A model generated the notes under the pieces. The model did not search any database. It was not told the origin of the DNA and saw only the letters and a list, made by a program, of their open reading frames with translations. Below are positions 4,530-26,880 of a stretch of 26,880 nucleotides of DNA, piece by piece. Every line of letters begins with the position of its first letter. Within the stretch, counting starts at the first letter, position 1. The translations under genes were made by a program, and so were the position numbers. The DNA comes from a virus: positions 1 to 26,880 of IMG/VR virus record IMGVR_UViG_3300030101_000592, one strand, 5' to 3'.

Positions 4530-4754
4530 ATGGCGCATACTATTATAGACGATTACAAGATATTTCCTAGACTGATGATGCTTGTAGTTACTATACTTAC
4601 TTATCAGTCTGTACACTGGTACATGTCTCTACCTGACCCCTCAAATGGACAGGCCGGGCTGGTAAGTGTATGTATGGGCGCATTGACGGGGTGTTTTGGG
4701 ATCTGGATGAACAAAGAAGCCAAGACTGATCGTGGAGGTATAAGTAATGGTTAG
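4530..4754 (+). CDS. Small two-helix membrane protein, holin candidate
   Basis: This 74-aa protein has two predicted membrane helices: about residues 13-32 (RLMMLVVTILTYQSVHWYM) and 42-60 (AGLVSVCMGALTGCFGIWM). They are joined by a short Pro/Asp/Gln loop and followed by a charged tail (KEAKTD). Small size, two helices and a charged C terminus fit class II or similar holins. The gene sits at the head of a region that also encodes an endolysin. A clear GGAG precedes the ATG by seven bases. The stop overlaps the next gene by eight bases. A non-holin membrane role is possible, because a second membrane protein at 5556-5939 is an equally good holin candidate. Confidence 0.55.
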   Translation: MAHTIIDDYKIFPRLMMLVVTILTYQSVHWYMSLPDPSNGQAGLVSVCMGALTGCFGIWMNKEAKTDRGGISNG

Positions 4755-5559
4755 AAGCTATTTTGAAAAGCTCAACAGCCCAACTCTAGCTGCTCCAAGC
4801 GCCGCTCCAAGCGCTGGTATAAAAAGTATTCCAAGACCAAAGAAAAGACCTGTTAATCCAAAAGTAGCGCATATGAATCAAGTCAAAAGGCACTTTGAAA
4901 TTCTTGGTACAGACAACCCTTTTGAACGGGCGCATGGGCTAATGAGAGGATCCATAGCTTCTGGCGGAAGTGGAGCTGACCGTCCATATAAGGATCTTAA
5001 AGATCTTGGTGATGGTGGCGGGCCGGGTAGAAGCGGTTCACGTTTCTTCATGCGAGATACAAGTGCTATGGATACTAATAATGATGGCTATATATCCGAA
5101 GAGGAAGCCATTACGTTCCAAAACAAGGATAGGGGCGCATATAACAAGGCGGTGGGTGGCATAGGAGCTGTTTCCAACGCTCTTGGCATACGTCCACTAG
5201 GTTCATATGAGAATGAAAGGACTAGAGGACCAAGAGGTACAAACATAGGAACAAGCGGTCTAGCAAATTACTTTGCTGGTGGGGGTCCATTTGGAGCTTT
5301 GTTTGGTGGCGGGCCTAATGCCAAGCAGAGAGCGATGCCTTCAATGGACGCTAATCAGCGGTTTACATTTGAAAATCTTAAAGCTTCTGGCATGTCAGAT
5401 GAAGAAGCCATAAAGTTTCTTGGCAGCAACTATTCTCCCCCTGCCCCGTCAACGTACACTAGTACCGACTATCTTATGGATGCTTCAAGATACAATCCTC
5501 CAATAAACATGAACATGGGCGGTATCATGCAGTTAGCTAACTTTGGGAGATCCGTATGA
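4747..5559 (+). CDS. EF-hand-containing protein of unknown function
   Basis: The product is 270 aa. The N terminus is rich in Ala, Pro, Ser and Lys (residues 10-40). Residues 109-120 form a canonical EF-hand calcium loop, DTNNDGYISEEE: Asp at positions 1 and 5, Asn at 3, Gly at 6, Ile at 8 and Glu at 12. Only one complete loop is visible, as is common in bacterial and phage EF-hand or dockerin-like proteins. The C terminus ends in MGGIMQLANFGRSV, a short GGI-type motif also met in neighbouring virion proteins. A strong GGAGG lies upstream of the ATG, which is inside the previous stop region, and the end overlaps the next gene by ATGA. The likely role is a virion or lysis-associated protein with structural calcium. 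No enzymatic motif is seen. Confidence 0.55.
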   Translation: MVRSYFEKLNSPTLAAPSAAPSAGIKSIPRPKKRPVNPKVAHMNQVKRHFEILGTDNPFERAHGLMRGSIASGGSGADRPYKDLKDLGDGGGPGRSGSRFFMRDTSAMDTNNDGYISEEEAITFQNKDRGAYNKAVGGIGAVSNALGIRPLGSYENERTRGPRGTNIGTSGLANYFAGGGPFGALFGGGPNAKQRAMPSMDANQRFTFENLKASGMSDEEAIKFLGSNYSPPAPSTYTSTDYLMDASRYNPPINMNMGGIMQLANFGRSV

Positions 5560-8521: not shown

Positions 8522-8941
8522 TTGAAGGTAAGCACTGTTCCGAAAGAAACAGTCAAGTATATATGGAAGGATGTTGAAAGGGTACTGAAGAAAAGTGTCG
8601 ATACTGCTACAGGTAAGGTAAATCTGATAGACGTATTACATGGGATTTTAAATGACACTTATGTTCTTTGGGTTGTATTTGATGGCGAAGAAGTAATAGC
8701 AGCCATAACTACAAGAATAATAGAGTACCCTCAACGTAGAAGCATGGCACTTGATTGGGTTGGTGGAAGTAGAATGAAAGAGTGGCAAGATATGGCAATA
8801 AAAAAGATTACTAACTTTGCTGTACTAAATGATTGCCAACACTTGGAAGGATATGGGAGAAAGGCTTGGGGTCGTGCATTGAAAAGGCACGGGTTCTACC
8901 CCGAATACATTGCGTACCGCATGGAGATAAAAAATGGGTAA
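8522..8941 (+). CDS. GNAT-like small protein, TTG start
   Basis: The product is 139 aa. The frame begins with TTG directly after the upstream TAA. No in-frame ATG occurs until the middle of the protein, and GGTGGGG and GGAG lie just upstream, so TTG is the most reasonable start. The middle has a beta-hairpin (WVVFDGEEVIAAITTRI, residues 43-59) and the end reads EGYGRKAWGRALKRHGFYP. That combination recalls the acetyltransferase (GNAT) fold used by T7 internal virion protein gp13 and related phage proteins, which usually lack acetyltransferase activity. No clear acetyl-CoA loop (R/Q-x-x-G-x-G/A) is present, so a structural or assembly role is more likely than catalysis. It overlaps the next gene by eight bases. 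Confidence 0.5.
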   Translation: MKVSTVPKETVKYIWKDVERVLKKSVDTATGKVNLIDVLHGILNDTYVLWVVFDGEEVIAAITTRIIEYPQRRSMALDWVGGSRMKEWQDMAIKKITNFAVLNDCQHLEGYGRKAWGRALKRHGFYPEYIAYRMEIKNG

Positions 8942-10190
8942 AGGCAGACAACCAGCAGAAACGAATGTAAGCACAGGGCTACCTGACTACGTTGATCCGT
9001 ATTTTAAAAGGCTTTTAAAGGGTGCTGAAGAAGCTACAATGCCGTTTGACCCTGAAACTGGCGAGTCTACTTACACTCCATACGGAGAAGAACGCCTAAC
9101 AAAATCAGCGGATTATACAGATATAACAGGTGCGCGAGATCAACTACGCGGTATCCTAGGCGGTGGGATTCCGGGCATGCAAGAGGCATATGATGCACAA
9201 CGTGCAGGCATCACAGGACTTACCTCACTTGCTGAAAGCCCTACAACATTTACCGCTGGCACAGCAGATCCATACAGCGGATTTACAGAATCTCAGTTTA
9301 CGAGAGGCGCAGGCACTGAGTTTGATTTTGGTGATGCACGACAGTTTACGGGTGATGAGGTTCAGAGGTACATGGACCCATACATGCAGAACGTTGTAGA
9401 CATACAAAAACGTGAGGCAGTTAGAGACTTTGATAGGGGTCAAGCAGGTAGAGATGCCTCTGCAGTGCAAGCAGGAGCATTTGGGGGTTCTCGTCAGGCA
9501 GTTGCACAAGGTATGGCAGAACAAAATCTGCAAGATCGTTTGGGTGATATACAGCAGATTGGTAGTCAAGCAGCGTTTGACAGAGCAATGCAAGCATTTG
9601 AATCGGATCGAGCTGCTGAAATGGGTGTACAGGGAAGCCAAGCTGCTGAAGCTGCTAGGGTACAAGGCATTGACATCGGCGAGTTGGGACGCACTGAAAG
9701 CGCTGCTGCTACCGAAGCCGCACGTAGGCAATCCGCTGAAGCCGCAGAGCTTGCACGTACACAGGGTATAGATCTTAGCGAAGCTGCTAGAGTACAAGCC
9801 GCTCAAGAGGCGCAGCGCATGGGTACGGCTGGCTTATACGGAGATTTAATGGGCGCAGGTAGAGGTCTTGTAGGTCTTGGTGAGCTTGAGCGTGGCACAG
9901 GCATACAGGACGCACAGATGCTTGAAACCATTGGTAGTGACATTCGTGCAGAGGATCAGGCACGTCTCGACCTTAATTATCAAGATTTCTTACGACAACA
10001 GGACTATCCAATCAGTCAGTACGAACGCTTTGCAGGTCTTTTGAGCGGTGTACCTACAGGAAGCTTAGATCGAACATCCATGCAGTATGCAGCGTTTAAC
10101 CCGATACAGGCTGCTATGGGTACAGGTCTATCAGCATTGGGACTGTATAGAGGTCTCGGCTACGGTGGCGGAGGAGGTATGTACGGATGA
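8934..10190 (+). CDS. Internal virion-type protein with Ala/Gln/Glu helical repeats
   Basis: The product is 418 aa. Residues 1-60 are polar. Residues 145-225 contain QRYMDPYMQNVVDIQKREA, followed by GAFGGSRQAVAQ, a block I associate with ejection or internal proteins of marine podoviruses. Residues 235-296 are an Ala/Glu/Gln/Arg helical repeat region with two copies of a similar unit, ARVQGIDIGELGR and ARTQGIDLSEAAR. Residues 360-374 read SQYERFAGLLSGVPTG, and the C terminus is Gly/Tyr-rich. There is no signal peptide. The start has GGAG upstream and lies inside the previous stop region; the end is ATGA-coupled to the next gene, with GGAGGAGG serving that start. The likely role is a capsid-internal protein that forms part of the ejected trans-envelope conduit. 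Inferred from position and architecture. Confidence 0.5.
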   Translation: MGKGRQPAETNVSTGLPDYVDPYFKRLLKGAEEATMPFDPETGESTYTPYGEERLTKSADYTDITGARDQLRGILGGGIPGMQEAYDAQRAGITGLTSLAESPTTFTAGTADPYSGFTESQFTRGAGTEFDFGDARQFTGDEVQRYMDPYMQNVVDIQKREAVRDFDRGQAGRDASAVQAGAFGGSRQAVAQGMAEQNLQDRLGDIQQIGSQAAFDRAMQAFESDRAAEMGVQGSQAAEAARVQGIDIGELGRTESAAATEAARRQSAEAAELARTQGIDLSEAARVQAAQEAQRMGTAGLYGDLMGAGRGLVGLGELERGTGIQDAQMLETIGSDIRAEDQARLDLNYQDFLRQQDYPISQYERFAGLLSGVPTGSLDRTSMQYAAFNPIQAAMGTGLSALGLYRGLGYGGGGGMYG

Positions 10191-12145
10191 GAGAAACTAT
10201 AATAGAGCAAACCGAACTCCTTAAAGATCTGCCAGATTCGGTCTTAATAAAAGAAATGAAACAACCTACAGGCAACCTAGCACCGCCTGTGTTTATAACT
10301 AGTGAACTAAAACGCCGACAACGTTTTCGTGATGAGTTTAAGAGACGTGAGGCACAAGACATGCCTACCGTTGCCGAAGAAGTAGTAATGGCTGCAGGTG
10401 TGCCGCAGCAAGGTATCATGCAGATGGCGAGAAGCATGGCTCCAAAAACAAACATGGGGCAGAACACAGGCATGGCTGACATGATGCCAAAACAGCCTAC
10501 TATGGGCATGTCTGGAGGAGGCATAGTCAAGATGCAGCCCGGTGGTATGATGGGGGCTACACCTGTTGTATTGAATGGATTTAAATACAATGTGTTTCCA
10601 GATGGACGTGTCGTACCTGATATGATAGGACAGCCAGCTACGCCGTTAGATCCTAACATGACTAGTCAAAGACAGATTATAGAGCAAGCTATGGCGGCTG
10701 CTAATAATCAAACAGTTATACCAGAAGAGCCATTAGGCGTTACAACACAAGATATGGCTTTAGCTGACGTTGAGGCTCGTAAAGCTGCATATGAGGCAGC
10801 AAATCCTAATGCGTCGCAAACTGATCAAGAACTTCTCTCTTTTGGTATGGAAAGGCTTTTGACTGGCGCAAGCTCTTTGGGAGATATAACAGATCATCTT
10901 GGTAGGTTCAGTGACAGCACACAAGATAGAATGTATTCAAGATTACTGCCACCGACAGACCCTAAGTCAGATCCAACCGCTTCAGTTACAACAACAGAAT
11001 TAGATACTGGTGCTATGACTCCTAAAAGCCTTACTAATATGGTCACCAATGCAATAGATGCGTCAGCAGTAGAAAAGGATCCAGAGTATTACAAATACAT
11101 ACCGCCAAATTTAAGATCTTTAGCAGACGTGTTGTTAAAAGACAGAGTGGAGACGATAGGATCAGCGGTAGACCTTGTAACTAGTGCGCCAGAAGCGATA
11201 AGTTCTAAAAAAGCAGAACTATCACAGATACTGGCCGATCCTAAACTTGATGACAAGCAGAGAGCTATTCTTGAGTCAAAAATTTCAGGGCTAAATTTAA
11301 TTTCGGGCGCAGGGCAAGCGCTAGACGATGCTGTAGGTGATATTATTGGTATATATCAAAGATTTGTAGCTAGCCCTGCTTATCAGCTCGCTGGAGCAGT
11401 AGCAGCGCCAGTGGACGCCGTAGCTGGAACGGACATCTCAGACGCTATGCTTGGAACAGCTTATGACATAAAGCAGCGGGGAAATAAAAACATTAGCGAA
11501 GGATTTGTACCCGGACTGGCAATAGATGCTGTGCTTGGTACAGGCCCTTTACCTAAAAAAGATACCCCAGAAGAATTAATAGAAAGTCTTGATGAGGAAG
11601 ATAAAACTGCAACTATAAACAAAGCCGCAAATATAGTGAAAGACGCTATAGGCGAAGACACGTTAGCTACAGCTTCAGGCGCACAAGGCTCACAGGCAGC
11701 ATCACAAGCGCAGCAGGGATTTACTGCTGATGATTGGTTTCAAATAGCGGCTCTTGGAGCGATGATTAGCTCAGGCAACCCGGAAGATTTGCAATCGGCG
11801 GCTAAAACGTTTTTAGCTATGGAGTCGAAAAAAGCAGACAGAAAAGCGCTAGAAGAGAGAGCTGAAAAAGATAGAGCTTCAAGAGAAAAGATTGCACAAA
11901 CTGCCGCTGATGCACAGGCAAAAGCTTTAGGTCAGAGAATTGACAAAGCTGCTAAAGATGATTTGAAAGACAGGTATGCGTTGCTGGGCGGAGAAGAAGC
12001 TTATCAAATCTTGTCAGCGCAACTGAAAAAAGATAAAAAACTACCCGCCGAGGCACTGCAAACACTTACCACTTTGCAAAGCATACGAGAAAAGCTAATA
12101 GGCGCAAAAGATCTAAAGAAAATAAATGTAACAGGCACAGCGTAA
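10187..12145 (+). CDS. Internal virion-type protein, 652 aa
   Basis: The N-terminal block (LLKDLPDSVLIKEMKQPTG, then PPVFITSELKRRQRFRD, residues 12-48) and TVAEEVVMAAGVPQQGI are familiar from the gene just before the giant internal protein in marine podoviruses. A Met/Gly-rich, flexible segment follows at about 80-130, including GGGIVKMQPGG. Residues 340-430 alternate hydrophobic Ala/Val helices with charged segments. From about 540 to 610 a highly charged Lys/Glu/Ala coiled coil is seen. There is no enzymatic motif. A strong GGAGGAGG precedes the ATG, which overlaps the previous stop (ATGA). An 11-base gap with only a weak ribosome-binding site separates it from the giant gene. The likely role is a partner of the giant ejection protein. 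Function unproven. Confidence 0.5.
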   Translation: MRETIIEQTELLKDLPDSVLIKEMKQPTGNLAPPVFITSELKRRQRFRDEFKRREAQDMPTVAEEVVMAAGVPQQGIMQMARSMAPKTNMGQNTGMADMMPKQPTMGMSGGGIVKMQPGGMMGATPVVLNGFKYNVFPDGRVVPDMIGQPATPLDPNMTSQRQIIEQAMAAANNQTVIPEEPLGVTTQDMALADVEARKAAYEAANPNASQTDQELLSFGMERLLTGASSLGDITDHLGRFSDSTQDRMYSRLLPPTDPKSDPTASVTTTELDTGAMTPKSLTNMVTNAIDASAVEKDPEYYKYIPPNLRSLADVLLKDRVETIGSAVDLVTSAPEAISSKKAELSQILADPKLDDKQRAILESKISGLNLISGAGQALDDAVGDIIGIYQRFVASPAYQLAGAVAAPVDAVAGTDISDAMLGTAYDIKQRGNKNISEGFVPGLAIDAVLGTGPLPKKDTPEELIESLDEEDKTATINKAANIVKDAIGEDTLATASGAQGSQAASQAQQGFTADDWFQIAALGAMISSGNPEDLQSAAKTFLAMESKKADRKALEERAEKDRASREKIAQTAADAQAKALGQRIDKAAKDDLKDRYALLGGEEAYQILSAQLKKDKKLPAEALQTLTTLQSIREKLIGAKDLKKINVTGTA

Positions 12146-12155
12146 AGGTTGTATC

Positions 12156-15100
12156 ATGGGCGTATACAACTATGTCGATCAGCAAACAGGACAAGCCTAT
12201 GAATTTACTATAGCAGGTGATACTCCTAGCGACACTGAATTTGCCAGAATAAGACAAGTATTAGAGACAGATCGCTCAGAAACCAGAGCAAGGCTAGAAG
12301 AACGATTTGGAGAAGGCTCCGTTGCTGAGTTTGATGATGGCACTGCTTTGGGTCGTGGGTTCGCTCGTGGTAAAAAACAATTTAAAGAAGCGATTGGCGA
12401 AACTATAGGTACGATTGGAGAAGAAACTGGTATCGGTTTCTTAGAAGATTATGGGGTTGGTTTAGAAGAACGCGCCCGTCAAGAACTAAACGAACTAATG
12501 TTACAACAACCAGAACGCATGCAATCTACAGACGTAGAGGGATTTGGTTCAGGGCTTACATTTATCGGTGAGACTTTCGGTGAGCAAATACCACAACTTG
12601 GCGCAGGTCTTGGCGCAGCGGCTACAACAGCCGTTCTTGCTCCTACAGCTCCGTTTGTTGCAGGTGCGGCAGCGGCGGGCGTTGCAACTGCACCCATACT
12701 ATTTGGTAACAACATACAGAGACAAGAAGACGAAGTTGCTGCAGGCAGAAAAGAAAGTGTTGATGTAGGGGCAGCTCTGACAGCCACGTTTGGGCAGGCA
12801 GCACTTGAAGGTATAGCTGACAAGATCTTGTTAGGTGGGTCTTTAGGCCCATTATTCACGACGCAAGGTAAGAATCTATTTGTTAGAACCGGATTCCGTG
12901 CAGGCTCAGGCGCAGGATCGGAATCCCTAACTGAAGTCGGGCAACAAATGCTTGAACGCTCTCAGGCGGGGCTACCCATCGACAGTGATGACGCTATCGC
13001 AGAATACCGTGAAGCAGCTATTGCAGGTGGGCTAGTCGGTGGCGGCGTACGAACTACTGTCGGCGCAGTTGGGGACACATTTGCAGGAGCTAGACAGGAA
13101 AGAGAAAGGGCTGAACGAGAGCTAGCAAACATACTTGATGATGACACTACGGCTGACATTACACCTACCTTAATTACAGACGAGATGCTTACAGAACTAG
13201 GAGTGGCTAACAGACCTAAAATGCCGATTCGCACGAAAGTAGTCGGTAAAGATATATCTGATCCAGAAGCACAAAAAGCTTTAAGAGCCTACGCTAAAAA
13301 CGCTGTAGTAAAGAAAAAAGATCCTAAGATAGGAGAGAAAATTGAAGCATTTATCAGATCAGCTCCCGCTAACGTCGAAGGAGCTGGAAGAAGCGTTGAG
13401 AGTGGTGAACCTAGCGTGGCTGGAAGCGGAAGGGTTGGAGGTGGAGTTGAGAGTGCCAAGAAGCCTACATCATCTAAAGACAAAGGAGTGGGAGCTGGTG
13501 TGTCAGCTTCTACTGATACTACAGACACAACAGGAACAAAGTCAGATACATTAACTGATGACCAGAAAAGAATACTTCTTATTTTACAAAGAGCTAGAGC
13601 TAGACAGCTTGAAGAATCTGTACAATTAGTAACTCCACCAGAAGCGAATAGTCTTGTAAAAGCTGGTCTTATGAGCAAAGAGGACGCTTTGCTTAATCCT
13701 ATGGCAACAGCTAGAGTAACAGAGCTACTAGCTGAAGACCCAAAAGCAGTATTATCTCGTGTTGGGCCAAAGAAAAAGTTAACTTTTAAAGATTTACCCG
13801 TTCCAGAAACAGATACAGAGACAGCGGCTAGGATCGCCACCACAGACGCAGATGTAAGTGCTTTAGGTGCAGAACAGGGAGCTGAGCTTTCTGCAACAGA
13901 GAAAAAAGCTGCGGATGATTTTGTTAAGGAGATGCAACTGCAAGAAACTGCGGCAGAAGAAGAGGCAACAGCAAAACGAGGGGCTGCGTTTTCTCCAGCA
14001 GAGAGAAAAGCGATTAGGGATTTTATTGACACTAAACCTGAGTTTGCGCCGTTATTTAAGGCAGAAACCCCTAAAAAGGTAAAACGTGTGCTGCTAGGAC
14101 AACGCGCTGCATTAATACGTGATATGTACGGATTAGGTGAAGTACCCGGAGTAGTACGCACACGACCAAACATACCCATAACAGGTATAGAAGGTGTTGA
14201 GGGAATAGTCGATACTAAGGTTGAAGATACTCCAGAGTCTATAGCAAGAGCTGAAGCCTTTAAGTCTGTTTTAAAAGAAGAAACAGACATTGCCCAACAA
14301 GAAAAGCAAGCCGAGTTGAACACTCAATTTGAACAGCCGCCAAAAAATAGAGTTGGACAGATATCAAAAGCAGAGACACAAGCCGCTAAAGAATACGATG
14401 CAATAGGAGACGGGGAACCCGATACGACAACCGTTGCAGACAAACAAGCTGTCATAGATTTAAAAGCGTCCAAAGCTAAAGATCGTGATAGCAAAGCAGA
14501 TGCTGCTTATATATTCTTTAATAAAAAACGTAGACCTGCAGATGCTTTGACAATTATAGGCGCTTTGAAATCACAAGGTACTAAGTTTAGCGAAACGAAA
14601 ACAGAAGATACGCCTACAAAAGAATTTTTATATTACAAAGACATGACCAGAGACAAGGCTAGACTAGCTTCTGAATGGGTAAAAGAAAACATGTCTAAAC
14701 AAGCACAAGACATAGTATTAGATTACGAAGTCGCTTACGGAAAAAGTACAATATCTGCAGCCCTTTCGGATAAGATAGACGCAGATATAATAGCAACAAG
14801 AGAAAAAGAGGCGGCGGCGACGGGTCCAAAACAAAAGCCCAAAAAACAGACAAAACAAGAGTTTGATCTAAAAGAAGTTAAACGTGACGATACGGCATTA
14901 GAAACAGCAAAACGTTTTGACGAAGGGATGTTTTTAGAAAAACCAGTAGCCTCATTAGACTTACGCCTCCTACCAGATGCCATACAAGCATTGGAAAACA
15001 ACAATTTAGGTGTAGCATTACGCACCTTGTCAGCTACTAGTCCTGTAAAACGTGTGCAACAGATAGCAGCTAGATTTGATAAGGTGGTAGGCACTACAAA

Positions 15101-18100
15101 GGTGCAGGTGCTTGATAGCCTTGAACCTACGTTAGGGCGTGAGGCTTCAGGTTTCTTTGAGCCTGAAACAAATACTATATTTATAAATAGAAATACTGGT
15201 ATGAACGCTCATACGTTACTACACGAGATGGGTCACGCGGTCACCTCTGCTTCTATAGCGGAAAACAAGTCTTCACCAACTACAAAACAGCTACAAACTA
15301 TCTTCAACACTGTGCGTGAGCAAATCGGCGAAGTATATGGCACTAGAAATTTAGATGAATTTGTATCCGAAGCATTAAGCAATCCACAATTTCAGTCGGC
15401 CTTAGCTTCAATAAGGGTAGACAGTGACAGAACTTCTTTATGGAGCAAACTTCGTGACAGCTTTAAAAAGATCCTACGCAGGGCATTAAGATTGCCACCA
15501 ACCTCTGCGCTTACAGAAACAGACAGTATAATAGATGCTATCATAGCACCTGCTCCAGAATATCGTGATGCTCCAAGAATACCGCTCATAACAGAAACAA
15601 AGTCGGGCGCTAATAAATTACTTACCAATATGGTAAACGTAGTGCCAGAAACAACACAAAATACGTTAGCTGACTTTGCAGATATAGCGTACAATGAAAA
15701 CGCCAAACCTGTTGTTAGGAACTTTTTTCTAAGTCTGCTTCCGTCAAATATTTTATCTGACATGGCTAAGTCTAAGATACCTTTTGCACCAGAACTAAAC
15801 ATATTAATAAACGAAATGAGTGGTTTGCTTAGAAACAAAACAGACATACTAAACTCACTATCTAATGAGTTGTTTAAATGGAAAAAAGCAAACCCTGAAC
15901 AATCTAAAATACTAAATAACCTCATACCACGCAGCACGTTTTTACGTGTTGATCCGTCTGTAGATGTCAGCACCTATAAGAATGATCGTCAGAGGACAGC
16001 AGAGCATGCAGACCTACTCGCTCTTTACAATCAGTTAGATCCTCAAGGTCAGAAGTTATACCAACAGATGAGAAATTACTTTCAGGATACATACAATGAC
16101 GTGATAGCAGCGTTGGAAACAAGACTAGAAGCTACCATGCCTGAAGGTGAGGCAAGAGTAAGCTCTATGAAGAGACTGGCGGAAGTATTACAAAAAGAAT
16201 CGGGTGTCATACGTCCGTACTTCCCACTCACACGCAAAGGCGACTATCGCCTATCCTATACTGGCCCTGATTTGTTGAATCCTCAGAATAAAGCAGGAGA
16301 ACGTTATGTAGAGTATTACCCTACGCTTAAAAAGGCGGAGCAGGCTAGGGATAGAGCAAGTAGGGTAACAGTTGATGGGGTTGGCACTGCAGACTTTGAA
16401 ATTTCTTTAGCCTCCAAACCTATGGATATAGAAAGAAGTCCTCCACCTAGATTTGTTATGCAAATTATAGACGCAGTAGATTTACGTAAAGATAAGTTTG
16501 CTAATGAACAAGACTATAAAGAAGCCATGCAAGCAATTATAGATTTATCTCTAGACGCTATGCCTGAACGATCTTTTATGCAAAGTTTTAGACGACGTGG
16601 AAATAGACGAGGGTTCTTAGGCGACACTACACCTACGGGTATGGGTGATATGGAATTTGACGCTTTTACAATGTTAAAAGAAAAAGGGCGTAATCTAAAC
16701 AGACAGCTAGTGCAGATGCAGTATGCAGCTAAACTAGAAAACTTTAGAAAAAAGCTAGCTATGCCTAGCAAAGAAGGGTCAAAACAAAGCTACCTTACTG
16801 ATCCTGTGACTGCACCTATAGCAGGGAAAATGAACCAAATAGCTAAGTTTGCTCAGGCTCCAAACATACCAAGAGCCTCACAAATAGTTAATAGTATAGG
16901 TTTTGGCTATACTATGGGTTTGAACTTTTCTTCTGCTTTCATTACTTTCTTTGACGTTGGCATGTCCTCCATGCCTGTACTCGCGGGTAAGTACGGTATT
17001 AGTAATACAACAAGAGCGTATGGCGATGCTGTAAGACTATTTACTAAAGCTCCTACAAAACGAACAGTTATGCTTCCGGGAGCAGACGGTACACCAACAC
17101 CTCAAGAGATAAATATGGGTGCTGCAGGTAAATCTTCCGGTAATTATGGAGATGCACTACCAGACGATATGAAGAAATTGTTTGTAGACAGAGCTATAGA
17201 CAAGGCCACGTCACAAGGACAGTTCAACCAGTCGTTTACACAAGAAGCTTTAGAAGTAGGTAAGGACGCGCCGCTTGAAACATTTAACCGTTATATGAGC
17301 TTTATGTTTCATCACTCAGAACGGTTCAACAGAGAGACCACATTCATTGCAGCGTATTTGGCATCCGCTAGAAAAGCATTGCAAGAGGGCAAGACACTCG
17401 ATGCTGATTTAGCAGATAAACTAGCGCAAGATGCCATAAACGATACTGAATTTACCCTTGGCGGGACAGCCGCTGCAGGACGTCCGACCATAGCACAGAC
17501 TGGTGTGGGTAACGTTGCCTTCTTATTTAAACGCTTTGCGATAAGTAAGTACTACATGATGCTACGTCTAGGTAGAGACGCTATGAAAAATATGGACCCT
17601 AAAGAGAGAAGGGCAGCACAAAAAGGACTGGCAGGATTTATAGGGATGTCAGGTCTTTTGGCAGGGTTGGGTGGGATGCCACTGATGGGAGCTTTAGGCG
17701 TACTGTACAACATGTTTACAGATGACGATGAAGATGATTTTGAAGCAGCTACACGTAAGCTAGTAGGCGAAGGTGTCTATGGTGGGCTAGCAAATCAAAT
17801 TCTTGGGGTAGATCTAGCTAATCGTATATCCATGAACAGTCTTATATATCGTAAACCCATTATAGAAAAAGATCAAAGTAACCTATGGACGTTGATAGAA
17901 CAGCTCGGCGGTCCCGTTGTAGGCGTTTATCTAAGTGCAGAACGTGGCGTAAAAGATATATCAAACGGTGAGATTTATAGAGGTATAGAATCTATGGTTC
18001 CAGCCGCTTTTAGGAACGTAATGAAAACTGGACGGTTTGCGGTTGAAGGCGCTACCACACGCAGAGGTGATCCGATTACAGAAGATATTAATCCATACAA

Positions 18101-18461
18101 TATAGGGATGCAGTTTTTGGGGTTTGCTCCAAACACTTACATACAATCCTTAGAGTTCAATAAAAACAATCGTCGCAGACAAGAAGCCATAAATAGTAGG
18201 CGTACTAAACTATTACGTCAGCGTAACATGGCTAGGAAAGAAGGCGACTTTGAAGAAGTATACGAAATAGATAGGTTAATAGAAGAGTTTAACGCTTCTC
18301 TGCCAAGCGGTGCATCCAAGTCTAGAATAACCAATGAAACTAAAAAAAGGTCATTTGCATCTTTTGGTAGGACAACGCTAAAAATGCGTGGAGGTATGAC
18401 GTATACCCCGTTCATGGAAGAAAGTTTGAACGAGTTCGATCAAGGTTTTAACTTATTTTGA
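12156..18461 (+). CDS. Giant internal virion (ejection) protein with zinc-protease motif
   Basis: The product is 2101 aa and the largest gene here. Residues about 140-185 are an Ala/Gly/Thr-rich hydrophobic stretch. Residues 380-850 are Lys/Glu/Ala-rich and probably extended or helical. A zincin motif HEMGH at 1023-1027, within HTLLHEMGHAVTS, is followed 45 residues later by DEFVSEAL, where Glu1072 (or Glu1068) is a likely third zinc ligand. Next come PYFPLTRKGDYRLSY (about 1355-1370) and further conserved-looking helical blocks. A hydrophobic segment at about 1824-1854 (GLAGFIGMSGLLAGLGG) precedes a basic C terminus. Size and position match the large gp16-like component of podovirus ejectosomes or polyvalent phage proteins. 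T7 gp16 carries a transglycosylase, whereas here the recognisable enzyme is a metalloprotease. The function on entry, such as processing envelope or host proteins, is inferred. Confidence 0.7.
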   Translation: MGVYNYVDQQTGQAYEFTIAGDTPSDTEFARIRQVLETDRSETRARLEERFGEGSVAEFDDGTALGRGFARGKKQFKEAIGETIGTIGEETGIGFLEDYGVGLEERARQELNELMLQQPERMQSTDVEGFGSGLTFIGETFGEQIPQLGAGLGAAATTAVLAPTAPFVAGAAAAGVATAPILFGNNIQRQEDEVAAGRKESVDVGAALTATFGQAALEGIADKILLGGSLGPLFTTQGKNLFVRTGFRAGSGAGSESLTEVGQQMLERSQAGLPIDSDDAIAEYREAAIAGGLVGGGVRTTVGAVGDTFAGARQERERAERELANILDDDTTADITPTLITDEMLTELGVANRPKMPIRTKVVGKDISDPEAQKALRAYAKNAVVKKKDPKIGEKIEAFIRSAPANVEGAGRSVESGEPSVAGSGRVGGGVESAKKPTSSKDKGVGAGVSASTDTTDTTGTKSDTLTDDQKRILLILQRARARQLEESVQLVTPPEANSLVKAGLMSKEDALLNPMATARVTELLAEDPKAVLSRVGPKKKLTFKDLPVPETDTETAARIATTDADVSALGAEQGAELSATEKKAADDFVKEMQLQETAAEEEATAKRGAAFSPAERKAIRDFIDTKPEFAPLFKAETPKKVKRVLLGQRAALIRDMYGLGEVPGVVRTRPNIPITGIEGVEGIVDTKVEDTPESIARAEAFKSVLKEETDIAQQEKQAELNTQFEQPPKNRVGQISKAETQAAKEYDAIGDGEPDTTTVADKQAVIDLKASKAKDRDSKADAAYIFFNKKRRPADALTIIGALKSQGTKFSETKTEDTPTKEFLYYKDMTRDKARLASEWVKENMSKQAQDIVLDYEVAYGKSTISAALSDKIDADIIATREKEAAATGPKQKPKKQTKQEFDLKEVKRDDTALETAKRFDEGMFLEKPVASLDLRLLPDAIQALENNNLGVALRTLSATSPVKRVQQIAARFDKVVGTTKVQVLDSLEPTLGREASGFFEPETNTIFINRNTGMNAHTLLHEMGHAVTSASIAENKSSPTTKQLQTIFNTVREQIGEVYGTRNLDEFVSEALSNPQFQSALASIRVDSDRTSLWSKLRDSFKKILRRALRLPPTSALTETDSIIDAIIAPAPEYRDAPRIPLITETKSGANKLLTNMVNVVPETTQNTLADFADIAYNENAKPVVRNFFLSLLPSNILSDMAKSKIPFAPELNILINEMSGLLRNKTDILNSLSNELFKWKKANPEQSKILNNLIPRSTFLRVDPSVDVSTYKNDRQRTAEHADLLALYNQLDPQGQKLYQQMRNYFQDTYNDVIAALETRLEATMPEGEARVSSMKRLAEVLQKESGVIRPYFPLTRKGDYRLSYTGPDLLNPQNKAGERYVEYYPTLKKAEQARDRASRVTVDGVGTADFEISLASKPMDIERSPPPRFVMQIIDAVDLRKDKFANEQDYKEAMQAIIDLSLDAMPERSFMQSFRRRGNRRGFLGDTTPTGMGDMEFDAFTMLKEKGRNLNRQLVQMQYAAKLENFRKKLAMPSKEGSKQSYLTDPVTAPIAGKMNQIAKFAQAPNIPRASQIVNSIGFGYTMGLNFSSAFITFFDVGMSSMPVLAGKYGISNTTRAYGDAVRLFTKAPTKRTVMLPGADGTPTPQEINMGAAGKSSGNYGDALPDDMKKLFVDRAIDKATSQGQFNQSFTQEALEVGKDAPLETFNRYMSFMFHHSERFNRETTFIAAYLASARKALQEGKTLDADLADKLAQDAINDTEFTLGGTAAAGRPTIAQTGVGNVAFLFKRFAISKYYMMLRLGRDAMKNMDPKERRAAQKGLAGFIGMSGLLAGLGGMPLMGALGVLYNMFTDDDEDDFEAATRKLVGEGVYGGLANQILGVDLANRISMNSLIYRKPIIEKDQSNLWTLIEQLGGPVVGVYLSAERGVKDISNGEIYRGIESMVPAAFRNVMKTGRFAVEGATTRRGDPITEDINPYNIGMQFLGFAPNTYIQSLEFNKNNRRRQEAINSRRTKLLRQRNMARKEGDFEEVYEIDRLIEEFNASLPSGASKSRITNETKKRSFASFGRTTLKMRGGMTYTPFMEESLNEFDQGFNLF

Positions 18462-22950: not shown

Positions 22951-23156
22951 TACTCGGCTTGCCCTGATTTAGTCACTTCTGACAATGCCGATTCCACATC
23001 ATTCAAACGAAAGCGATACACCTCACCCACCTTTATATAAGTGTCATCAGGTATGTAATCGTTGTTTACCCACTTTCGAACAGTAGATACGGACACTTGG
23101 AAGTAATCCGCTACTTTATTAATATTTACATATGGAGTATCTTCTACTTGCATCAT
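22950..23156 (-). CDS. Small helix-turn-helix DNA-binding protein (excisionase/MerR-like)
   Basis: The product is 68 aa, a single winged-helix-type domain. VNINKVADYFQVSVSTVRKW (residues 9-28) is a clear helix-turn-helix with the typical Ser-Val-Ser-Thr-Val-Arg-Lys-Trp recognition helix. It is followed by a wing, YIKVGEVYRFRLNDVESAL, as in the excisionase/MerR-type HTH_17 family. Such proteins act as excisionases, transcription regulators or terminase small-subunit-like DNA binders. No integrase is visible, so a regulatory or replication-initiator role is more likely here. The ATG at 23156 overlaps the upstream stop (ATGA), and a second ATG follows directly. GAGG lies upstream. The stop is coupled to the next gene by TAATG. 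Confidence 0.7.
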   Translation of the reverse strand: MMQVEDTPYVNINKVADYFQVSVSTVRKWVNNDYIPDDTYIKVGEVYRFRLNDVESALSEVTKSGQAE

Positions 23157-23545
23157 TTGTTTTTCCTCACAGAAACAACGTATTCACTGTCCACATTCAG
23201 ACCTGCAGGTTGAAGATCAGGGTTTTCTTCTAAGAACTGCCTTACGTTGGTTTGGTTAAGGCGCTTTTCAAAAAACTCTAGAAGGTTGTGCTTCTTTACA
23301 AAAGCATACATGGCTTCCCAGTCATTAGTCCAAACGCGCTGTCTGACAGTGCGATAAAATACACCGCTTGCGGTTTTCACACTATCCACCCCTTGCTCTT
23401 TGCAATAGTCCAACATAGCAGCTTTTATCTTGTCTTGCTGTTTAGATAATTTTTCATCTGCTTCTTTGAACTCCGCAGACAACTCAGATCTTTTACTTCT
23501 TATTTTTATAAAAGTCTTTAATAATTTATCGACACTAACGGTCAT
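23153..23545 (-). CDS. Coiled-coil protein of unknown function (Gp157-like layout)
   Basis: The product is 130 aa. Residues 5-50 form a Lys/Glu-rich coiled coil (LLKTFIKIRSKRSELSAEFK and onward). A beta-like segment, VDSVKTASGVFYRTVRQRV, follows at 53-71, then a helical part with EAMYAFVKKHNLLEFFEKRL, and a C-terminal strand EYVVSVRKNK. The order coiled coil, strand pair, terminal VRK strand is reminiscent of phage Gp157-type proteins, but I could not confirm the family. GGAG lies eight bases before the ATG. It is the first gene after a 51-base gap that holds a weak dyad and a promoter candidate. It may act in early phage regulation or DNA metabolism. Function unknown. Confidence 0.55.
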   Translation of the reverse strand: MTVSVDKLLKTFIKIRSKRSELSAEFKEADEKLSKQQDKIKAAMLDYCKEQGVDSVKTASGVFYRTVRQRVWTNDWEAMYAFVKKHNLLEFFEKRLNQTNVRQFLEENPDLQPAGLNVDSEYVVSVRKNK

Positions 23546-25417: not shown

Positions 25418-26088
25418 TAGTTACTCCCATTATGAGGACACTCCATCACTGGACAATGACGCTTGCATAAACCAGAGGGACGGGGGTTCCATACCTCTTT
25501 GTCAAACGCTATTTGCATACTAGCATACTTTGTTAACCATTTCTCCCAAAGAATTGACTCGGAGTCAATTTCATAAGTTTCTTTTATTAAACTACCCGCA
25601 ACTACAAAAAGCAGACCCGCTTTTATTTTTGTTACCTGTGGGTAATGTTTAAATACCGATAGAGCCATAAGCTCAAGCTGCCCTTTATCTGCATATCGTG
25701 CAGATTTGCCTGTTTTATAATCTATAACCCAAGCCATCTCTGCCAGTACATCTACTATTATAAGATCAGCTATACCCCTAAACCACACTCTCTTATCAAA
25801 GAAGTCACAGGGTTCTAAGTCTTCAGTTAGCCCCAACTTCTTTTCACATACTTTTATACCTCTTTTATTGTTTAGAGCGTCTAGCGTAGGCTCTATAAAC
25901 CCAAACTTTTTTGGTAGAGGTGCATCCTTTCCAATATAATCTTCACATGCTTTATGAAACTCAGTGCCATATCGCGTAGCTTCTGTCTCTTCAAAAGGAT
26001 ATTCTTTTAATATACTAACGTGATAGAACTGCTTCGGGCATGTATCAAATGCCTTTGCTTTGCTAAATGACCAAGGTGCTATGCTCAC
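25417..26088 (-). CDS. PD-(D/E)XK exonuclease of RecB/Cas4 type
   Basis: The product is 223 aa. FSKAKAFDTCPKQFY (8-22) is the typical entry motif of RecB/AddB-type nucleases. RYGTEFHKACEDY follows (39-51, His45 and Glu49), and the catalytic core is GIADLIIVD (Asp108), WVIDYKTGK (Asp123, Lys125) and GQLELMAL (Gln137). Cys17 plus a C-terminal Cys208-x3-Cys212-x4-Cys217 cluster resemble the four-cysteine iron-sulphur site of Cas4 and AddB nucleases, though the spacing differs slightly. It probably resects DNA ends during phage recombination, replication or host DNA breakdown. The ATG overlaps the polymerase stop (ATGA). No CRISPR array or other cas gene is nearby, so a Cas4 adaptation role is not indicated. 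Confidence 0.82.
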   Translation of the reverse strand: MSIAPWSFSKAKAFDTCPKQFYHVSILKEYPFEETEATRYGTEFHKACEDYIGKDAPLPKKFGFIEPTLDALNNKRGIKVCEKKLGLTEDLEPCDFFDKRVWFRGIADLIIVDVLAEMAWVIDYKTGKSARYADKGQLELMALSVFKHYPQVTKIKAGLLFVVAGSLIKETYEIDSESILWEKWLTKYASMQIAFDKEVWNPRPSGLCKRHCPVMECPHNGSN

Positions 26089-26880
26089 TCGCAGTCTCCA
26101 TAGGATTTTCCTGTGCCGCTTTCACAATCCACAGGTAAGCCTGTTGCCCAATCGGGTGTCCATCTCATGCACTCCTCAACATACGTTTGAGCCGCTGCTA
26201 CTTCGGTGTCTTCCACACAGCAAACTATTGAGTCGTGTACCGTCAACACCACTTTATATTTCTTACTAATTCTTAGCATTTGTTCACCTATAATACAACG
26301 TGCTAGTGCTTGGCACACATTCTCTATTACCTTGCCACCGTATATTCTAGTGCGCCCCCTACGTGTTTTATAGCTATACTCAATACCCTTTTCGCCTTGT
26401 TCTCCTGACAAATCATCGTAACGCACTAATAACCCTGACGGCAGTACAATACCGCGTTCCGATCCCGAAACTTCCAATATACCTTCTCTACCAAAATGCG
26501 CGGCTCTTTTACTTGCAAGCTGCTGTATCATATGATGAGCGTCGCGCCATACCTTACTAATTTTAAAGTTAGAGTCACGATATATCTGTATTATCCTCCG
26601 GGCCTCGTGGGGTTCGACTTCATACCCAAACGTCTTTAGCTGTGTGCCAAACTTCTCAGCACCCATACCATATCCTGCGCCTAAGATTGTAGTTTTGCCA
26701 ACGAACCGCTGATCCTTTGTGACATCCGCCTCGTCACATTGATATATACGTGACGCCATCTTTACATATACATCCTCACCTTTTGCAAATGCAGCGGTGA
26801 GATCGTCTTGCCCTGCAAACCATGCCAATACTCGCGCTTCAATCTGCGAACTGTCAGCTTCTACTATGGTGTAGCCTTCG
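26085..26880 (-). CDS. DNA polymerase, family A (C-terminal part; gene continues past window)
   Basis: The frame is open from 26879 without a stop, so only the C-terminal 264 residues are visible; an apparent TTG start at 26828 is internal. Motif A is VEADSSQIEAR (catalytic Asp9 of the visible part, Glu14 as the usual dNTP gate residue). Motif B/O-helix is RFVGKTTILGAGYGMG, with Arg58, Lys62, Leu66 and Tyr70 spaced by four as in E. coli Pol I R754, K758, F762 and Y766. Motif C is TVHDSIV (His215, Asp216), with Ser where many family members have Glu. YGGKVIENVCQALAR also matches the family. This is the phage replicative polymerase. Leu at the 762 position is a known marine viral variant. The exonuclease domain, if present, lies beyond the right edge. 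Confidence 0.93.
   Translation of the reverse strand, partial: EGYTIVEADSSQIEARVLAWFAGQDDLTAAFAKGEDVYVKMASRIYQCDEADVTKDQRFVGKTTILGAGYGMGAEKFGTQLKTFGYEVEPHEARRIIQIYRDSNFKISKVWRDAHHMIQQLASKRAAHFGREGILEVSGSERGIVLPSGLLVRYDDLSGEQGEKGIEYSYKTRRGRTRIYGGKVIENVCQALARCIIGEQMLRISKKYKVVLTVHDSIVCCVEDTEVAAAQTYVEECMRWTPDWATGLPVDCESGTGKSYGDCE

What the first reader, a model, noticed from the sequence alone, without database searches (positions are those of the whole stretch)
12156..18461. Giant ejection protein with a complete zincin signature
HEMGH at residues 1023-1027 and a downstream DEFVSEAL glutamate, in the middle of a 2101-aa virion-type protein, are consistent with an active zinc metalloprotease carried in the capsid and delivered at infection. 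In T7 the equivalent giant carries a cell-wall hydrolase instead. A protease could process envelope proteins, other ejection proteins, or host targets.
Basis: partly seen in the sequence, partly recalled or inferred. Interest (0 to 1): 0.5.

Follow-up and report, generated by a model that had tools for sequence, protein, structure and literature searches.

The report
Zinc-protease domain in phage ejection giant
A 2,101-residue protein of an uncultured phage carries an intact, strictly conserved zinc-protease fold of a kind already predicted in proteins that phages inject into bacteria, so it is a sound new member of a known kind whose cutting activity is untested.

Summary
ORF 12156-18461 (+) encodes 2,101 aa with HEMGH at 1023-1027 and DEFVSEAL at 1067-1074. 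Chance would give 0.0013 HExxH. Among relatives fetched by N-terminal motifs, not by the zincin, 50 of 50 with the region complete keep H1023, E1024, H1027, E1068 and E1072. The predicted fold has the zincin core; a structural aligner matches it to the largest ejection protein of phage PhiM1 (Z 9.0), to domain C1 of N4 virion RNA polymerase (7.7) and more weakly to lethal factor. But the idea is in print: Iyer et al. 2017 named zincin MPTases the commonest domain of polyvalent proteins, N4 vRNAP included, and this protein also carries LPD39. T7 is a misleading contrast: phiKMV gp37 and PhiM1's giant have the zincin too. Three of the four phages nearest by terminase have an unrelated giant in the same place without HExxH, so the module is exchangeable. 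Likeliest: a catalytically competent zincin in an ejected polyvalent protein that processes itself or its neighbours at ejection or entry. Zinc binding, activity, virion presence and substrate are untested. New member of a known kind.

The parts
12156..18461 (+). Giant polyvalent-type ejection protein, 2,101 aa
   Evidence: ORF and translation; LPD39; DarB-like PHROG
12156..13145 (+). N-terminal module, residues 1-330; part of it also occurs in giants with other middle parts
   Evidence: 18 loci (L134-L151) match only here; dN/dS 0.15-0.29 in four pairs
12630..12704 (+). Only stretch above the hydrophobicity threshold, residues 159-183; candidate membrane-inserting segment
   Evidence: Kyte-Doolittle, window 19, peak 1.68 at threshold 1.6
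13146..14927 (+). Fast-evolving linker, residues 331-924
   Evidence: dN/dS 0.37-0.44 in four pairs
14973..15575 (+). Zincin (MPTase) domain, residues about 940-1140
   Evidence: AlphaFold2 model, structural matches, profile matches in PDB sequences; dN/dS 0.12-0.13
15210..15236 (+). HTLLHEMGH, residues 1019-1027: predicted ligands H1023 and H1027, base E1024, extra invariant H1019
   Evidence: 50 of 50 complete relatives
15336..15341 (+). Y1061-G1062, aligned with the Tyr-Gly of lethal factor
   Evidence: alignment; Y in 46 and R in 4 of 50
15354..15377 (+). DEFVSEAL, residues 1067-1074: predicted third ligand E1068, with E1072 one turn on
   Evidence: both in 50 of 50; in N4 the first is kept, the second is W
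15723..16157 (+). LPD39, residues 1190-1334
   Evidence: Pfam PF18858, E 4.7e-12, 46.4 bits against a cut-off of 27
15723..18434 (+). Mostly helical C-terminal module, residues about 1190-2093
   Evidence: model; homologous to the end of Parlo's giant; dN/dS 0.07-0.10
8522..8941 (+). 139-aa protein upstream, position of a small ejection protein
   Evidence: phrog_25629, unknown function, E 2.3e-5; similar to DNA of pelagiphage HTVC023P, E 1e-7
8934..10190 (+). 418-aa putative DNA ejection protein
   Evidence: phrog_4287 'DNA ejection protein', E 6.3e-11
10187..12145 (+). 652-aa protein just before the giant; place and size of N4 gp51
   Evidence: no PHROG at E<=0.1, Pfam only far below cut-off, no phage hit at E<=1e-3; N4 gene order

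Best explanation
The ORF is the largest ejection protein of an uncultured phage and a phage-type polyvalent protein: an N-terminal module with one hydrophobic stretch, a fast-evolving linker, a zincin of the N4-C1/PhiM1/lethal-factor type, and a helical C-terminal module that begins with LPD39. Shown here by computation: the fold, complete and invariant ligands and base, purifying selection, kinship with ejected or virion proteins. Inferred: it is packaged, passes through the tail partly unfolded, refolds in envelope or cytoplasm, and the zincin then binds zinc and makes one or a few cuts. Catalysis of some kind 0.62; likeliest substrate the giant itself or a co-ejected protein (0.4; this would free the strongly conserved C-terminal module from the N-terminal part), next a host protein (0.2).
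For: H1023, E1024, H1027, E1068, E1072 in 50 of 50 complete relatives not selected on the motif. Zincin core in the model; VIA Z 9.0 to PhiM1 TEP 278-516 (144 aa, rmsd 3.9), 7.7/7.6 to N4 gp50 2124-2366, 5.2-5.7 in 20 of the 26 lethal factor entries listed. PDB sequence profile hits: PhiM1 gp48 8e-7, an internal virion protein 1.6e-4, lethal factor 0.012-0.22. Predicted viral structures: 22 of 274 matches at E<=0.001, among them a structural protein of phi14:2 and internal (core) proteins of Ab05 and BB8. Zincin homology to phi14:2 g065, whose record cites MS/MS proteomics, and to the vRNAP of Presley. Zincin dN/dS 0.12-0.13 against 0.37-0.44 in the linker. LPD39 and DarB-like matches. Endolysin and ejection-protein PHROGs just upstream. 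Iyer et al. propose processing by such domains (passages).
Against: No zinc, activity or substrate is shown for this protein, nor for N4 gp50 in the passages and sections that I read. Iyer et al. cite N4 vRNAP as packaged unprocessed. Foldseek alone gave no PDB match at E<=0.001, best 0.049; N4's Z is below the tool's caution line of 8. Curated models hit the zincin only under cut-off (DUF6782 16.5 bits against 27; 21.1). Y1061 is R in 4 of 50. The C-terminal module is under stronger constraint than the zincin. Three related phages do without it at the same place. No proteomics for this phage.
Confidence: 0.62

Rival explanations
1. The zincin fold is kept for structure: it belongs to the packaging/ejection unit with the C-terminal module, and proteolysis is not its job.
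For: For N4 a review says that the C-part is essential for encapsidation (PMC8472413 passage), and the CTD inhibits the polymerase (PMC12633501 section 7); vRNAP is cited as packaged uncut. On the PhiM1 chain the zincin match (278-516) is followed by the C-module match (554-916), the order seen here.
Against: A structural role does not need the base E1024, yet it is kept in 50 of 50 and in the giants of N4, phiKMV, Presley, phi14:2 and RHph_TM3_14A.
Confidence: 0.25
2. The zincin is an effector that cuts a host defence or envelope protein after entry, as the first reader suggests (a sub-case of the catalytic reading).
For: Fold of lethal factor, a host-directed protease; Iyer et al. allow it; giants with a similar N-terminus often lack it, as expected of exchangeable cargo.
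Against: Within the family the domain is strictly conserved and slow-evolving, unlike a fast arms-race effector; no substrate known.
Confidence: 0.2
3. It is a cell-wall peptide hydrolase that opens the peptidoglycan, doing by other means what T7 gp16's transglycosylase does.
For: Pfam found no lysozyme or transglycosylase in the giant or in the four proteins before it. The corresponding stretch of PhiM1 was called endolysin/exotransglycosidase-like by its authors (section 7).
Against: Structural neighbours are zincin proteases (lethal factor, PPEP-3, selecase). phiKMV is annotated with a lysozyme motif in gp36 beside the zincin in gp37; Parlo has a transglycosylase and HExxH sites in one giant.
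Confidence: 0.07
4. A non-peptidase HExxH metal enzyme, such as an alpha-ketoglutarate-dependent HExxH oxygenase.
For: One such domain (8s5f) is in the structural list at Z 2.9; the N4 authors name another enzyme class with this motif beside zincins.
Against: Far below 9.0 and 7.7 for the phage domains; E1068 lines up with lethal factor's Glu.
Confidence: 0.03

Closest known systems
Phage-type polyvalent proteins with zincin-like MPTase (Iyer et al. 2017, PMC5512222; passages read)
   Same: Giant late-gene protein; MPTase core of three strands, HExxH helix and Glu helix; an LPD domain (LPD39)
   Different: Few recognised domains: zincin and LPD39 only, no methylase, helicase, ART or RNAP in the Pfam scan; lacks the Asp of the one clade that the passages spell out
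N4 virion RNA polymerase gp50, domain C1 (9pnt, 9pnr)
   Same: Zincin fold (Z 7.7/7.6), HExxH and third Glu, followed by a large helical part; last gene after a protein of about 650 aa
   Different: No polymerase domain here; by sequence only a weak zincin match (hhalign probability 32%, E 5e-4) and none to N4's C2; E1072 is W
PhiM1 tetrameric ejection protein gp48 (8vb2)
   Same: Best structural match of the zincin (Z 9.0); also among the 11 best rows for the C-module (Z 4.5), in the same order on the chain
   Different: 1,263-residue chain; the stretch was called endolysin/exotransglycosidase-like by its authors
phiKMV gp37, internal virion protein
   Same: HEAVH at 423-427 in a like setting, hhalign E 2e-8
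   Different: 1,337 aa; Glu further downstream; W in place of E1072
Rhizobium phage RHph_TM3_14A giant QIG67549.1
   Same: Zincin and C-terminal module aligned over 1,033 columns, E 6e-43; HEATH and EEFVAEAF
   Different: 2,307 aa with an inorganic pyrophosphatase domain
Anthrax lethal factor protease domain
   Same: HExxH, Tyr-Gly and third Glu align; 20 of 26 entries listed at Z 5.2-5.7
   Different: A secreted toxin; only the protease fold is compared

Membership tests
Zincin-like metallopeptidase (MPTase) | HExxH on a helix | tested here: met
   Residues 1023-1027 in model helix 1018-1036
Zincin-like metallopeptidase (MPTase) | Third ligand Glu on a later helix | tested here: met
   E1068 in model helix 1066-1075; 50 of 50 relatives
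[quoted passage not shown]
   H41-53, E58-62, E75-78, E83-87, H94-112, H142-151 in model numbering; feature as stated in PMC5512222
Zincin-like metallopeptidase (MPTase) | Zinc binding and peptide cleavage | not testable with these tools
   Needs the bench
MPTase clade with His after strand 2 and Asp three residues after HExxH (PMC5512222) | Asp at the third residue after HExxH | tested here: not met
   Residue 1030 is T; the extra invariant H1019 lies at the start of the HExxH helix
Phage-type polyvalent protein | MPTase joined to an LPD domain in one long protein | tested here: met
   LPD39 at 1190-1334 above its cut-off
Phage-type polyvalent protein | Gene among late virion genes | tested here: met
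   Structural, endolysin and ejection-protein PHROGs upstream; terminase, portal and capsid in the rest of the record
Phage-type polyvalent protein | Packaged in the virion and injected | not testable with these tools
   No proteomics for this phage
T7 gp16-type largest ejection protein | Fold of the gp16 core | tested here: inconclusive
   9jyy (T7), 7eyb ('core proteins'), 9vvp (phage E1004) and 8vb2 (PhiM1) are 4 of the 11 best rows for the C-module, but at Z 4.5-4.7 and with unrelated proteins at the same Z
T7 gp16-type largest ejection protein | N-terminal lytic transglycosylase (known of T7 gp16; recalled) | tested here: not met
   No such Pfam match in P0001 at E<=1
N4 virion RNA polymerase | RNA polymerase domain | tested here: not met
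   No RNA_pol match in the Pfam scan of P0001; the genome search found none either, but its controls were silent too

The most novel reading that the evidence does not exclude
One exchangeable zincin module sits in the largest ejection protein of phages of quite different kinds (phiKMV and PhiM1 among the T7-like, N4-like, crAss-like, polyvalent giants, this uncultured group) and works as a shared ejection-stage protease that separates the membrane-bound front from the delivered rear of the giant: an unrecognised step of genome entry.
Probability: 0.22. Interest if true: 0.65.

Novelty: new member of a known kind. Interest (0 to 1): 0.34.

Why it matters
Nobody has shown what the zincins of ejected phage proteins cut. 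This family is a clean case: few other recognised domains, a motif invariant over 38-98% identity, three of six histidines in it, and a cultured relative with the same zincin and C-terminal module (Rhizobium phage RHph_TM3_14A). If active, it would place proteolysis in the act of genome entry; if inactive, it would show a zincin fold kept with all ligands for another reason. It also suggests that a domain in the published PhiM1 ejectosome and in phiKMV gp37, both labelled as endolysin-type, should be relabelled.

Tried and rejected
Pfam and PHROG models reach the zincin only weakly: DUF6782 at 16.5 bits under its cut-off of 27, phrog_87 'metallo-protease' E 0.0015; the DUF6782 genome search gave 21.1 bits, still under, and rang in 3 of 14 control genomes. 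phmmer of the single protein found nothing in PDB sequences; only profiles did. Foldseek with model 1 gave no PDB match at E<=0.001. The wider profile A4 lost PhiM1 and kept only 9sfn, E 0.0016, at sequence level.

I expected N4's helical C2 to match the C-module. It was not found by sequence, nor among the rows listed for model 2; the aligner sees only Foldseek's candidates, so this is open. Model 2 (mean pLDDT 70.6, pTM 0.66) is middling; its best Z was 5.1, to an unrelated complex.

I considered that the zincin might be essential for this type of phage. Against: of the four phage records nearest by terminase (46-47% identity) I looked at three (023Pt_psg01, HTVC027P, HTVC023P; not DSL-LC04); the long protein in the same place (1,386, 1,342, 868 aa) has no HExxH and no detectable homology. 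I did not scan the rest of those genomes for HExxH. Also, of the 18 loci sharing only the N-terminal part, 13 have a closed frame of 2,000 aa or more and 9 of these have no HExxH; 7 of 18 were scanned with Pfam and 7 of 7 carry LPD38.

Biases: one search was seeded on HT[LV]LHEM, so its loci cannot test the motif; the count rests. The script kept only ORFs with HExxH, so invariance of that motif in A4 and A5 is circular. Searches hold some contigs twice under different locus numbers. The search for an RNA polymerase in the record had silent controls. The dN/dS values are rough counts with a Jukes-Cantor correction. Lethal factor's residue roles are recalled.

Papers: PMC5512222 passages; PMC12633501 passages, abstract and outline, sections 6, 7, 11; PMC11440229 passages, abstract and outline, section 7; PMC10386132, PMC10925440, PMC7824862, PMC8472413 passages; all others listings only. 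No listing that I saw names a zincin in phiKMV gp37 or PhiM1 gp48; few of those papers were opened.
Full report
What is there. ORF 12156-18461 on the + strand is open and encodes 2,101 aa. HEMGH lies at 1023-1027 and DEFVSEAL at 1067-1074. The protein has six histidines, three of them in HTLLHEMGH; its composition predicts 0.0013 HExxH. The window is part of a 61,942-base virus record. The gene stands last in a + strand block with virion structural, endolysin and 'DNA ejection protein' PHROGs, before replication genes on the other strand; terminase, portal and capsid genes are in the rest of the record.

Conservation. I tested the motif on relatives fetched through two N-terminal peptides (ILFGNNI, TEVGQQM), so not selected for the zincin (76 loci). 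54 have a zincin-profile hit; 50 are complete over it and 50 of 50 keep H1019, H1023, E1024, H1027, E1068 and E1072; Y1061 is Y in 46 and R in 4. The rest: two contigs end just after an intact HExxH, one before it, and in L121 the frame is broken at the motif; 4 of the 76 end before the domain and 18 match only in the N-terminal part. The 50 form 14 clusters at <70% identity, the lowest 38% to the window. dN/dS in four pairs is 0.12-0.13 in the zincin, 0.37-0.44 in the linker and 0.07-0.10 in the C-terminal module, so the zincin is constrained but not the most constrained part.

Fold. AlphaFold2 with 31 sequences gave mean pLDDT 75.9, most blocks of residues 11-210 of the model above 80. The order of elements is helix, three strands, HExxH helix, helix, Glu helix: the MPTase core as Iyer et al. 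describe it (passage). Foldseek alone was weak (best lethal factor, E 0.049). The second aligner, over Foldseek's 1,000 best chains (996 aligned), put PhiM1's tetrameric ejection protein first (Z 9.0, 144 aa, rmsd 3.9, chain 278-516), then N4 gp50 (7.7 and 7.6, chain 2124-2366, which is C1), then lethal factor (20 of 26 entries listed at 5.2-5.7), with PPEP-3, selecase and ArdC at 3.4-3.9. The tool warns that Z under 8 may be a common arrangement; only PhiM1 passes that line. Among predicted viral structures 22 of 274 matches have E<=0.001, including LPD proteins, a structural protein of crAss-like phi14:2 and internal (core) proteins of phages Ab05 and BB8. By sequence, profile A3 finds PhiM1 gp48 (8e-7), the 1,337-aa internal virion protein 9sfn (1.6e-4) and lethal factor (0.012-0.22) in the PDB. 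In that alignment E1068 falls on the Glu and Y1061 on the Tyr that I recall as zinc ligand and catalytic helper of lethal factor.

Relatives. The C-terminal part holds LPD39 and matches 'DarB-like antirestriction' proteins of isolates. hhalign of profile A4 finds zincin plus C-module in the giant of Rhizobium phage RHph_TM3_14A (E 6e-43), the C-module in Serratia phage Parlo (8e-74), and the zincin alone in phi14:2 g065 (1e-10), annotated from MS/MS, and in the Presley vRNAP (9e-8). N4 gp50 has HELVH at 2228 and NEF downstream but is hardly found by sequence (probability 32%, E 5e-4; nothing at the zincin). phiKMV gp37 has HEAVH at 423 in a like setting (E 2e-8). So the giant that stands where T7 has gp16 carries this zincin in at least two T7-like phages.

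C-terminal module. A model of residues 1138-2101 is mostly helical (pLDDT 70.6, pTM 0.66). In the aligner's list (724 chains aligned) four of the 11 best rows are largest ejection proteins: 9jyy (T7), 9vvp (phage E1004), 7eyb (titled 'core proteins') and 8vb2 (PhiM1), at Z 4.5-4.7, mixed with unrelated helical proteins up to 5.1. Suggestive, not proof. On the PhiM1 chain the zincin match (278-516) precedes the C-module match (554-916), the order seen here.

Exchangeability. 18 of the 76 loci share only the N-terminal part; 13 have a closed frame of at least 2,000 aa and 9 of these have no HExxH; seven were scanned and all seven carry LPD38. Of the four phage records nearest by terminase (46-47%), three were examined: the long protein in the same place (1,386, 1,342, 868 aa) has no HExxH and no detectable homology. 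The zincin is thus a module that comes and goes between giants, though fixed within this family.

How it probably works. Iyer et al. 2017 proposed that MPTases of polyvalent proteins process these proteins themselves or act on host targets, and noted that N4 vRNAP is packaged uncut while P1 DdrB is cut before packaging (passages). The 2025 N4 preprint describes C1 as having a conserved HExxH and gives no test of it in the sections that I read. With the base and all three ligands invariant here, I put catalysis of some kind at 0.62; the giant or a co-ejected protein is the likelier substrate (0.4), a host protein next (0.2). A structural role is the main rival (0.25). Virion location is inferred from kinship and gene order.

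Known or new. Family, idea and fold are known; this is a new member. Two points look less well known: PhiM1's domain 268-528 was labelled endolysin/exotransglycosidase-like (section 7; the words protease, metallo and peptidase do not occur in its main text), and phiKMV gp37 is annotated 'with endolysin domain', while both look like this zincin.

Noticed in passing
8vb2_A 268-528 (PhiM1 gp48) and L165:5567-9580 (phiKMV gp37): Both are labelled as endolysin-type domains or proteins, yet match the zincin profile or model and hold HExxH with a later Glu.
   Followed up: partly
window 26085-26828 (-) and L157 65-1120 (-): The family A-type DNA polymerase seems split over two neighbouring ORFs: the 247-aa one matches phrog_17 positions 1021-1234, the 350-aa one 672-1002.
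   Followed up: no
window 23153-23545 (-): A 130-aa ORF in the replication block matches phrog_13900 'minor head protein' at E 3.5e-23, an odd place for a head protein or a doubtful label.
   Followed up: no
L121 near 4,700-4,800: In this distant relative the reading frame of the giant breaks at the zincin motif; assembly error or real loss is open.
   Followed up: partly
L134:6783-15665, L137:9656-19717, L138, L150: Giants sharing only the N-terminal part carry a different HExxH type followed by an E-E-A-x-A-(D/E)-x-F motif; L137 also has an ART-PolyVal domain.
   Followed up: partly
window 8934-10190: A 51-aa stretch matches a 023Pt_psg01 protein annotated 'putative peptidoglycan binding protein'; possible source of cell-wall targeting in the ejection set.
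   Followed up: no
residue 1019 (window 15210-15212): H1019, four residues before the first ligand, is invariant in 50 of 50 but has no counterpart in N4 or phiKMV; role unknown.
   Followed up: no
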